DNA from: Streptococcus uberis
GTDB taxonomy: Bacteria > Bacillota > Bacilli > Lactobacillales > Streptococcaceae
DNA length: 64,000 nt
Direction of reading: 5' to 3'
NCBI RefSeq assembly: GCF_000785785.1
Contig: NZ_JRQN01000006.1
Location: forward strand, 40,905 to 104,904
The notes under the pieces were generated by a model. It saw only the letters and a list, made by a program, of their open reading frames with translations. It was not told the origin of the DNA and made no database searches. Below, one piece after another: positions 26,153 to 35,680 of this stretch. A program made the position numbers and the translations under genes. How positions within the stretch are numbered: position 1 is the first letter of the stretch; the number at the start of each line of letters is the position of its first letter.

Positions 26153-29100
26153 TTAGTCATTTTTATTCTTCAAGGCTCTTCTTATCGGGATACCTAAACT
26201 TGATGTCAAAATCAAAGCTAATATCACTAGTAGAGATTGATTTTTTTCACCTGCCTCAGGCAATGAGCGATTAGTAGCTTGCCTATTAACTACTTTTTCT
26301 TCATTTGTAATATCATTTTGTCTTGTTTTGTTAGATATCATACTAATAGGTAGCACTGAAGCATTAGGTAACTCTTTTAAATCTTCTGTTCCTACAGTAT
26401 GTTTCGCAGTAGGAAGGGCAGGTCTTAAAATAGCCATCGGATGACTTTTTTCTACTGGATTTGCTAGAGTTGTCTCTGTTGATTGGTAAACCACACTATA
26501 AAGACTGAAATGTTCAACAGCAAAGATTACCTTGTCCTTGTTAGCAGACAGGCTAAAAGGTAAACTTTCTAGCATCGTTCCTGCCGATGAAGGCAAGACA
26601 TAAAAAACATGCTCAACTGTTCGATTAGGATCAACAGCAATTTCAACGATAGCTTTATCTGTAATTGCAACTTTTTGATCCTTACCATTATAAAGAGTGA
26701 TATCATAAAGCTTGGCATTTTTTTGAGAGGATAATTCTTTTGGAACCATCGGCAATATCTCTGAGAATTTACCTGAGTAGTCAATTACTTTGATGGTCTT
26801 AGTTGCCTCCGCATCTGTGCTACTCAATAATACCCCAACATTACCATTCGAGAAGCGTTTGGACTCAGCCTTTGATTGTGTAATTTCTTTGTTTGATTCT
26901 GTTTGTTTTTTTTCTGGGACACGACTCTTAACCGTCACTTTTAGTCCACTAACATTAACAAGTTGTTCCCCAGCTTCTGAAATAATCATTTGTCCCCAAT
27001 TTTTATCCGACACTTGATAAATTAATGTTCTAGAATCTTTTTGCTGAACAAAAGTTAAGACAGAGTCATTGGCTAGCCGTAAATCTGGTTTTTTGACTGC
27101 AAGAATCGGATGATCAAATGTCAATTCTAATTTATTACCATCAAATACTTTTGTTGCCATTACTTTTACTTCTGGAACCTGTGGATCTTTTATCAAGAAG
27201 TTCCAATTGAAAGTCTTAAAGCTTAGAGTATAATCGTTTTGACCACCTTCTCTATGCTCATAGAGTACGCCAAAAGTATCCTCGTCAACTTGCTGTACAG
27301 AGTTGTAAGCAAAGCTTCCATCTTGAATAAGACGATGATGTAACCATTTCAAGCGACCATCTGATTGAACTTCAGCTAGGCGAGCATACCCTGCGACACG
27401 ATTCCTTCCAGGACCATTGGCATTAACTAGTAACACGTATTCTTTATCACCATGTTCAACGCGAATAGCTGATAATTGAACATAGGCGTCAGGAACCTCT
27501 GAGTATTCTTCAACCGTAGCTTCCCAAGTTTGGCCTCCATCTTTACTTGTAGCAACTTGTAATTTACCTGTCAAATTTCTCATGAAGAGTTTTAAGTCCC
27601 CATTTTTTAGCTCAACTGCAACCGATTCTGTATTCTGAGCTTTCTCATCATTCATATTTTTAGAATGAATAACTCTGCCATGGCTTAACTGACGATTATC
27701 ATTAACAGCTTCCCCTAATTGCCATGTTTTGCCATGATCATCAGAATAAATGACTCGTGATGATTGAGAGCCTGTTAGATGGGATATCCAGTTCGTTGTA
27801 TAGGCTGGCACAATAATACGCCCCGCATGTTTTCCATAGGTCAGAGTAATCCCAGTTCCAGGCCCTACTCCTAAGAATTTTAAATCAGGATTACGAAGAC
27901 TAGCTGTGATGTCTTGTGGTGAAGACCATGTTTTTCCATCATTATCACTATAAGACATCCAGATATAATTAGATTTAGCAATACGGAAAGGAGAAGTCTT
28001 ATGAGTAGTGAAATAGATATTCCCTATTTTTTGTTGATCCTCATAAATATCGCCTAAGTCAGCATGATCCTTTGTATCTGTTTTTATAATCACATGATAA
28101 TTTGTTGGCTTACCATCAGGACCATAGACACGCCCTTCTTCACGAACAGTATAAACGTCATTTGTTTTTTGATCGGACTGATCAACCTTATACAGTCTTA
28201 AATATGATTTATCACCTACTTTGACATATTCCTCTTCGCGTTGTGACTCTTTTTCAGGCATTCCAAAGATACCTCTACCTTCTGGGAACATATCAAAGAG
28301 TGAGAAAATACGCTTTGTAGATGAGTCTTGAACGAGCACCATATCAATGTTTACTGGAGATCCTGCGTATTCTTTGGTGTGATAATCAACTTGTGGATTG
28401 TCTCTAAGATTGACTAAAGTTTGGCGTTTTTCCCAATCAAGCCCTTTATTAAGGCTTCGACGGATAACCATTCCAATGTTTCCCCAGTCTTTGATGTGCT
28501 CAAAACGCTCATCTGCACCAGCAATAAGGGTTCCTTTATCAGTTCTTAGTAAAGCTGGAATACGATAACCATAGACTTTATCTTGATTCTTTGCTTCTGT
28601 AAGCCCACTTTCAAAGAGATCGTTCTTTGGTGATAAGATGGCCCCTTCTGGTAGTTTTTTCTCAACATTTTCTCGTAAGAATAAGATAGATCGTTCCTTT
28701 ACCTCATCTGCGTTGAAAGGTTTATTGTAGACTGTCAAATTTCGAACTTCAAAGTGAGAATCTTTCCAATAATCTTCATTACCTCGTTTTGTTATTCCGA
28801 GTTGTACCATTTTGGGACTCGCAAGATCCTTAATAAATAAGATCGGCTTATCGCTGGTGTAGGATAATTGTCCATTGACATATAACTGTGCTAACCCATC
28901 TTGAGCTGTCACAAAAGCAAGCGAGTTCCATTGATTCGCTTTTATAAGGTCTTTAGCTACTGCAACGGCATTCTTTTTATCATTCTTATCTGAAGCTTCG
29001 ACGCCGAATTTACCTTCTTTTGTAAGATAGAGATAGAAGCGTTCTTTAACATTATCAGTTGTTGATACAGAAAAGAGGTTCATGAAGCTATCAAGCTGTT

Positions 29101-35680: not shown

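What the first reader, a model, noticed from the sequence alone, without database searches (positions are those of the whole stretch)
26153..35680. One protein carries a whole host-glycan trimming cascade: GH2, GH20 and GH33 on one chain
Seen: one uninterrupted frame of 3175 residues holds a beta-galactosidase with both catalytic glutamates, a StrH-like hexosaminidase with its D-E pair, and a NanA-like sialidase with Arg, three Asp boxes and Tyr, between a signal peptide and a sorting signal. Known: in S. pneumoniae BgaA, StrH and NanA are separate surface proteins that act in order on N-glycans. Inference: here they evolved by fusion into a single tethered machine that can process a glycan without release between steps.
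Basis: partly seen in the sequence, partly recalled or inferred. Interest (0 to 1): 0.92.

Follow-up and report, generated by a model that had tools for sequence, protein, structure and literature searches.

The report
Three-enzyme sugar-stripping streptococcal surface protein
A streptococcus encodes one 3,175-residue protein that holds a sialidase, a beta-galactosidase and a beta-hexosaminidase domain, which pneumococcus makes as three separate proteins, and the protein would likely strip host sugar chains from the bacterial surface and feed the galactose pathway encoded beside it.

Summary
One uninterrupted 3175-codon frame (minus strand, 35680 to 26153) carries GH2, two CBM32-like modules, GH20, a lectin and GH33; the ten catalytic positions checked are all kept. 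It is no assembly join: two other protein clusters have the same full-length order (92% and 87% identity; one in an S. dysgalactiae record with a 2.26 Mb contig). Their enzyme modules are 91-97% identical to the window's, spacers 44-71%. It holds the only GH20 and GH33 found in its genome and sits between a Gat-type PTS and lacABCD, where pneumococcus has bgaA behind gatABC. Of 284 Streptococcus species genomes only this one shows it. In the tree the sialidase part groups with degenerate free-standing sialidases at or beside this locus, one probably S. agalactiae NonA. Comparable activity triads on one chain occur elsewhere in other arrangements (Helcococcus kunzii; metagenomic GH20-GH33-GH2). 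'No release between steps' is untested. The anchor reads LPEAG, not LPXTG, and no GH85 was found, so surface anchoring and N-glycans as main substrate are likely at most. New variant of a known kind (multicatalytic glycosidase); interest 0.55.

The parts
26153..35680 (-). three-enzyme glycosidase gene, 3175 aa, GTG start; the protein on record (P0002) starts 2 codons later
35579..35650 (-). YSIRK-type signal peptide motif (residues 11-34)
32606..35194 (-). GH2 beta-galactosidase module (residues 163-1025), E589 and E675
31361..32605 (-). accessory region with Big_4 Ig-like domains (1026-1440), aligned with the same region of solved chain 7nit
30917..31315 (-). F5/8C (CBM32-like) module a (1456-1588)
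30401..30823 (-). F5/8C (CBM32-like) module b (about 1620-1760)
29366..30328 (-). GH20 beta-hexosaminidase module (1785-2105), D1955-E1956
28682..29215 (-). sialidase N-terminal lectin (2156-2333)
27176..28648 (-). GH33 sialidase module (2345-2835), six catalytic positions kept
26264..27175 (-). C-terminal region (2836-3139) without Pfam match, ending in a divergent spacer
26156..26263 (-). sorting signal LPEAG + hydrophobic stretch + positive tail (3140-3175)
35707..35720 (-). exact cre-like (CcpA) palindrome, 26 bases upstream of the start codon
   Evidence: consensus recalled
36122..37570 (-). Gat-type PTS EIIC upstream (EIIA-like at 37881-38447)
38566..39333 (+). divergent DeoR-family regulator (LacR-like)
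22125..25998 (-). lacA, lacB, lacC, lacD (lacD short), aldose epimerase downstream
17629..21973 (-). LacT-like antiterminator, lactose/cellobiose-type PTS component, GH1 (LacG-like)

Best explanation
This gene encodes one chain with intact-looking sialidase, beta-galactosidase and beta-N-acetylhexosaminidase domains plus predicted sugar-binding domains, and it would likely be held on the cell surface, where it is predicted to remove sialic acid, then galactose, then N-acetylglucosamine from sialyl-LacNAc ends of host glycans. Shown: the single frame, the catalytic residues, the same architecture in two other protein clusters, constraint on all three enzyme modules, the position between a Gat-type PTS and the tagatose-6-phosphate (lacABCD) genes, and that searches of the genome found no other GH20 or GH33. 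Inferred: export and anchoring; activity; that released galactose enters through the neighbouring PTS and is burned by lacABCD, so that the sialidase and hexosaminidase mainly uncap and clear the chain; repression by CcpA through the cre-like site. The simplest benefit of one chain is equal dosage, one anchor and closeness of the three active sites, not necessarily hand-off. Origin (inferred): a beta-galactosidase at the bgaA position behind gatABC that gained a hexosaminidase and a lectin-sialidase related to the sialidase of the same locus in other streptococci.
For: Domains and residues. Not an artefact: P0003 (92%, 3172 aa, S. dysgalactiae record, longest contig 2,256,164 bases, 18 member sequences) and P0004 (87%, 3174 aa, 4 member sequences, 5 contigs) cover 100% of the query. 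Constraint (identity of the window's protein to P0003/P0004): GH2 93/91, GH20 97/96, lectin 97/91, GH33 97/92, CBM32-a 98/97, against N-terminal spacer 47/46 and C-terminal spacer 71/44. Sole copies: 1 BNR_2 and 1 GH20 match in the genome (95% complete), both this gene. Locus; pneumococcal gatABC carries galactose and is co-transcribed with bgaA across a long intergenic region (PMC3302838, passages); here the gap is 441 bases. cre-like site: one place, matched on both strands (2 rows; shuffles: mean 0.15 rows, 3 of 100 with as many). Sialidase kinship: fusion + G062 + G002 with 98/97 support; G002 holds a peptide assigned to S. agalactiae sialidase A.
Against: No activity was tested. The sorting motif is LPEAG, unlike LPETG in P0003 and P0004. 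The free-standing sialidases that group with it have degenerated, so loss is possible in this lineage. No GH85 endoglycosidase was found in the genome (95% complete), and a sialic-acid lyase family matched only below its cut-off with a stop inside, so full N-glycan or sialic acid use is doubtful; NanE is present but beside a PTS. lacD looks truncated. The GH2 is not closest to BgaA, so its linkage preference is uncertain. By identity the GH33 is nearest to G016 and G075 (67%), not to G062 and G002 (64%).
Confidence: 0.72

Rival explanations
1. Coupled line: the three active sites face one bound glycan and the chain hands the same arm from site to site, so that the whole Sia-Gal-GlcNAc unit is removed in one encounter.
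For: Comparable triads are joined in at least two other ways (P0016 and P0037; P0242); short spacing between GH20, lectin and GH33; two CBM32-like modules and a lectin that could hold the substrate.
Against: Module order is not the order of action; about 760 residues separate GH2 from GH20; the AlphaFold model of GH20-lectin-GH33 was poor (pTM 0.46), so orientation is unknown.
Confidence: 0.25
2. The chain mainly works in adhesion or in altering host surfaces and immunity, and nutrition is a by-product.
For: Two CBM32-like modules and a lectin; BgaA CBMs mediate adherence (PMC4161441, passages).
Against: Placement between a Gat-type PTS and the lac genes with a cre-like site points to feeding.
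Confidence: 0.18
3. One or more modules are catalytically dead and kept as binding domains.
For: The free-standing GH33 genes that group with it have degenerated; S. agalactiae NonA is reported inactive (PMC4926279).
Against: All ten catalytic positions checked are kept here and in P0003 and P0004, and module identity is far above that of the spacers.
Confidence: 0.1
4. Assembly join of three neighbouring genes.
For: The assembly is a 96-contig draft, and infB and lacD look frame-broken in the same window.
Against: Same order, full length, in P0003 and P0004; no separate GH20 or GH33 gene was found in the genome.
Confidence: 0.01

Closest known systems
S. pneumoniae NanA + BgaA + StrH (three separate surface exoglycosidases)
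   Same: Same three kinds of enzyme and expected order of action (PMC5215778); GH33 639 bits to NanA, GH20 362 bits to StrH; position behind a Gat-type PTS as bgaA behind gatABC (PMC3302838)
   Different: One chain instead of three; one GH20 instead of two; CBM32-like modules and no match to BgaA's CBM; GH2 closer to 5dmy than to BgaA
S. agalactiae NonA (PMC4926279)
   Same: The fusion's GH33 groups with G002 (S. agalactiae-like by a peptide match) and the unnamed G062; G002's gene lies between EIIC and lacA like the fusion
   Different: Free-standing; NonA is reported to lack lectin and anchor and to have lost activity; the fusion keeps lectin and all catalytic positions checked
Chains with GH2 and StrH-like GH20 in other streptococci (G076, P0007, G138/P0006, G282; S. 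caprae P0005 in the order GH20-GH20-GH2)
   Same: GH2, accessory region, CBM32-like module and GH20 on one chain; in G076 beside a Gat PTS and lacT-lacE-lacG; GH2 of P0006/G282 groups with the fusion's GH2 (98, SH-aLRT of a quick tree)
   Different: No sialidase on the chain
GH2-GH84-GH33 protein of Helcococcus kunzii (P0016) and GH20-GH33-GH2 metagenomic proteins (P0037, P0242)
   Same: Beta-galactosidase, N-acetylglucosaminidase-type and sialidase modules on one chain
   Different: Other family or other order; 24-46% identity by module; separate origins are inferred
B. bifidum SiaBb3, GH33-GH123 bifunctional enzyme (PMC12856340, abstract part and passages)
   Same: Sialidase and a second exo-enzyme on one chain act in sequence on one epitope; shown biochemically in that paper
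   Different: Two activities, other second family, Sda antigen

Membership tests
GH2 beta-galactosidase | GH2 domains with acid/base and nucleophile Glu | tested here: met
   E589, E675
GalB equivalog (NF041463) / BgaA | score over the curated cut-off (GalB); closest to BgaA | tested here: not met
   GalB 572.9 bits, cut-off 900; BgaA chain 4cu6 530 bits against 830 for 5dmy; PF21606 CBM not matched
GH20 (StrH-like) | D-E pair in the GH20 barrel, StrH-level similarity | tested here: met
   D1955-E1956; 362 bits to 2yl6/4az7 and 355 bits to 2yl5/4azg (that these are StrH modules A and B is recalled)
StrH | two tandem GH20 modules | tested here: not met
   one GH20 match
GH33 (NanA-like) | Arg triad, Asp, Glu, Tyr; N-terminal lectin | tested here: met
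LPXTG sortase-anchored protein | LPXTG, hydrophobic stretch, positive tail | tested here: inconclusive
   LPEAG followed by a hydrophobic stretch and positive tail; not listed by PF00746. That some S. aureus sortase substrates have LPXAG is recalled
YSIRK signal peptide | YSIRK-G/S motif | tested here: met
   TIGR01168 20.5 bits over 20.2; Pfam model just under its cut-off
Multicatalytic glycoside hydrolase | two or more active catalytic modules on one chain | not testable with these tools
   modules present; activity needs an assay

The most novel reading that the evidence does not exclude
A self-contained sialyl-LacNAc stripping line: one tethered chain takes sialic acid, galactose and GlcNAc off the same glycan arm in one encounter, and selection has built such lines at least three separate times (GH2-GH20-GH33, GH2-GH84-GH33, GH20-GH33-GH2). 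A bolder rider, not counted in the probability: the puzzling inactive sialidase NonA of group B Streptococcus is the leftover third module of the line at this locus.
Probability: 0.2. Interest if true: 0.82.

Novelty: new variant of a known kind. Interest (0 to 1): 0.55.

Why it matters
[quoted passage not shown] A natural single-chain version lets one ask directly whether joining the steps changes rate, intermediates or growth, which three free proteins cannot show. The repeated assembly of comparable activity triads in unrelated chains suggests selection for the joint, and the kinship with NonA gives a locus-level lead on where an orphan inactive sialidase may come from. It could also be tested as a one-pot deglycosylation reagent.

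Tried and rejected
Assembly artefact: rejected by P0003 and P0004. Genome-collection scan with the GH20-lectin junction: 7 loci, all short matches (24-31 residues) in Bacteroidales records, no fusion; the tool notes that records very near the window's genome may be left out. GH20 origin: no firm placing; holding it with the G138/G282 GH20 gives p-AU 0.061, with the G076-type GH20 0.054, with both together 0.041; the groups were named after the quick tree was seen, and long branches meet. So one common GH2-GH20 ancestor is neither shown nor excluded. For that tree I dropped four long rows (P0013, P0037, P0015 and one P0005 module) and kept a choice of the StrH rows (32 of 53 rows used). GH33: the trees used 52 of 107 rows (repetitive protease-sialidase rows thinned) and 26 (P0016 and P0037 among the rows left out); holding the fusion with G016+G075 or with G075 alone gave p-AU 0.012 and 0.00014, also named after the tree, although G016 is its nearest row by path and identity. 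Remnants of GH2 or GH20 beside the free-standing sialidases of G002 and G062: none by tblastn, so 'NonA is a leftover of the fusion' stays a guess; the opposite (a resident sialidase was recruited) fits as well. AlphaFold of GH20-lectin-GH33: 12-row alignment, pLDDT 64, pTM 0.46, not used. N-glycan pathway: GH85 not found; GH125, GH38, GH92 and GH18 endoglycosidases were not searched. PMC7344566 (7 passages): none shown ties a sialidase peptide to S. dysgalactiae. Genus searches scored at most two candidates per genome and printed cut match lists; a whole match would rank first, but weaker chains may be missed, so the list of joined enzymes in other species is a lower bound. Papers (open-access PMC only): searches (20 of 22 listed; 2 of 2; 10 of 10; 10 of 10; 15 of 78; 15 of 111; 6 of 242; 1 of 1) listed no title or abstract start about a GH2-GH20-GH33 protein; the unlisted papers were not seen. 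Passages were read in PMC12856340, PMC5215778, PMC4161441, PMC7344566 and PMC3302838, passages and one section in PMC4926279.

Full report
What is there. The frame named in the finding lies on the minus strand (start 35680, stop 26153) and runs 3175 codons without a stop. Pfam and PDB comparisons give, from the N-terminus: a YSIRK-type signal; a GH2 beta-galactosidase (about 163-1025); an Ig-like accessory region (1026-1440) that aligns with the same region of the solved beta-galactosidase 7nit; two F5/8C modules of CBM32 type (1456-1588 and about 1620-1760); a GH20 barrel (1785-2105); the sialidase lectin (2156-2333); a GH33 sialidase (2345-2835); an unassigned C-terminal region; and an LPEAG sorting signal. 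The ten catalytic positions that I checked are kept: E589 and E675 (GH2), D1955-E1956 (GH20), R2373, D2398, E2685, R2701, R2759 and Y2792 (GH33). Which residue does what is recalled from the literature on BgaA, StrH and NanA; conservation was seen.

It is real and constrained. A search of about 5.8 billion proteins found 326 matches (7985 candidates scored); the best 120 were listed. Besides the window's own record (P0002) two cover the whole query: P0003, 92%, named S. dysgalactiae, 18 member sequences, longest contig 2,256,164 bases; and P0004, 87%, 4 member sequences, 5 contigs. That speaks firmly against a private assembly join. Compared module by module with the window's protein, the enzymes, the lectin and the first CBM of P0003 and P0004 are 91-98% identical, while the N-terminal spacer is 46-47% and the C-terminal spacer 44-71% (between P0003 and P0004 themselves the GH2 is 87%). 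All three enzymes are thus under constraint.

How rare. In one genome for each of 284 Streptococcus species (the window's own included), 167 have some match to the GH20-lectin-GH33 stretch, and only the window's genome covers it whole (at most two candidates per genome were scored and the match list was cut, but a whole match would rank first). The window's genome (95% complete) has one BNR_2 sialidase match and one GH20 match, both in this gene, and two GH2 barrels, the other in a 1112-residue protein near ABC-transporter genes and a two-component system.

Where it sits. Upstream on the same strand are a Gat-type EIIC and an EIIA-like frame, with a divergent DeoR-type regulator; downstream lacA, lacB, lacC, lacD, an aldose epimerase, a LacT-like antiterminator, a lactose/cellobiose-type PTS component and a GH1 enzyme. 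Pneumococcal gatABC carries galactose and is co-transcribed with bgaA across a long intergenic region (PMC3302838, passages); here the gap before the long gene is 441 bases. An exact cre-like palindrome lies 26 bases before the start codon. Of 174 genomes with a strong EIIC match (own genome included) I read the locus in 24 others: none has the three-enzyme gene; in 14 of the 24 EIIC is followed directly by lacA; in G002 a sialidase lies between them; G076 and, split in two frames, G280 have a GH2-GH20 chain.

Kin of the parts. In the GH33 tree the fusion groups with two free-standing sialidases of this locus, G062 (beside the regulator) and G002 (between EIIC and lacA, broken by a stop), with 98/97 support; holding the fusion with other kin instead is disfavoured (p-AU 0.012 and 0.00014, groups chosen after seeing the tree). 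Against this stands that by path and identity the nearest rows are G016 and G075 (67%, against 64% for G062 and G002). G002's sialidase holds a peptide that PMC7344566 assigns to S. agalactiae sialidase A, so it is most likely the gene described as NonA, reported to lack the lectin and anchor and to have lost activity, with nonsense mutations in five strains (PMC4926279, section read). Both free-standing copies depart from the fusion at one of the catalytic positions (six compared for G062, five in the piece used for G002). No piece of GH2 or GH20 was found beside them. The GH2 groups with that of the GH2-GH20 chains P0006 and G282 (98, SH-aLRT of a quick tree). The GH20 cannot be placed.

Other joined enzymes (a lower bound, from the long frames that I read). 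GH2-GH20 chains: G076, G138, G282 and, split, G280; GH2-GH84 chains: G037, G264, G265, G266 and a record named S. suis (P0012). Sialidase is joined to GH31 (G161, G054), to a GDSL esterase (G054, G001), to GH101 (G022), to trypsin-like and fucosidase domains (G210), to GH20 (G037), and in G019 to GH101, GH29 and GH2 on a 6585-codon frame. Outside the genus, Helcococcus kunzii P0016 has GH2-GH84-GH33, and the metagenomic P0037 and P0242 have GH20-GH33-GH2. The GH2 modules of P0016 and P0037 fall in other clades than the fusion's and their GH33 modules sit on very long branches (P0242 was in no tree), so such triads have most likely been joined several times.

How it most likely works. From these parts I infer an exported, probably wall-bound chain that uncaps sialylated LacNAc ends, frees galactose for the adjacent PTS and lac pathway, and clears the next GlcNAc. 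That joins what pneumococcus does with three proteins (PMC5215778, passages). N-glycans as the main target are also open: no GH85 was found, and sialic acid use is uncertain.

Verdict. Observation confirmed, interpretation partly supported, new variant of a known kind. The value lies in a natural single-chain test of a known cascade, in the repeated assembly of such chains, and in the link to NonA.

Noticed in passing
window 43961-46818: infB (IF-2) is split into two overlapping frames (672 and 280 aa), which suggests a frame error in this draft or a real lesion in an essential gene.
   Followed up: no
window 23045-23788: The lacD frame is 247 aa and matches only positions 82-325 of the lacD model: truncated or frame-broken at its start.
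   Followed up: no
L065 (G019:C1:1470000-1489900): 6585-codon frame with sialidase, GH101, GH29 and GH2 plus BgaA-type CBMs: a four-enzyme glycosidase chain.
   Followed up: partly
P0037, P0242: Metagenomic GH20-GH33-GH2 proteins, another three-enzyme order.
   Followed up: partly
L075 8128-10347 (G002): A probable S. agalactiae NonA lies in the slot of the fusion, between Gat EIIC and lacA.
   Followed up: yes
L098 5193-11918 (G076): GH2-GH20 chain between a Gat PTS with a lacC-like gene and lacT-lacE-lacG; split in two frames in G280 (L096).
   Followed up: partly
window 42507-43508 and 26153-35680: A neighbouring hydrolase is at most 80% identical to any other of the 120 listed proteins, while the fusion is 92% identical to an S. 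dysgalactiae record: possible transfer of the long gene between species.
   Followed up: no
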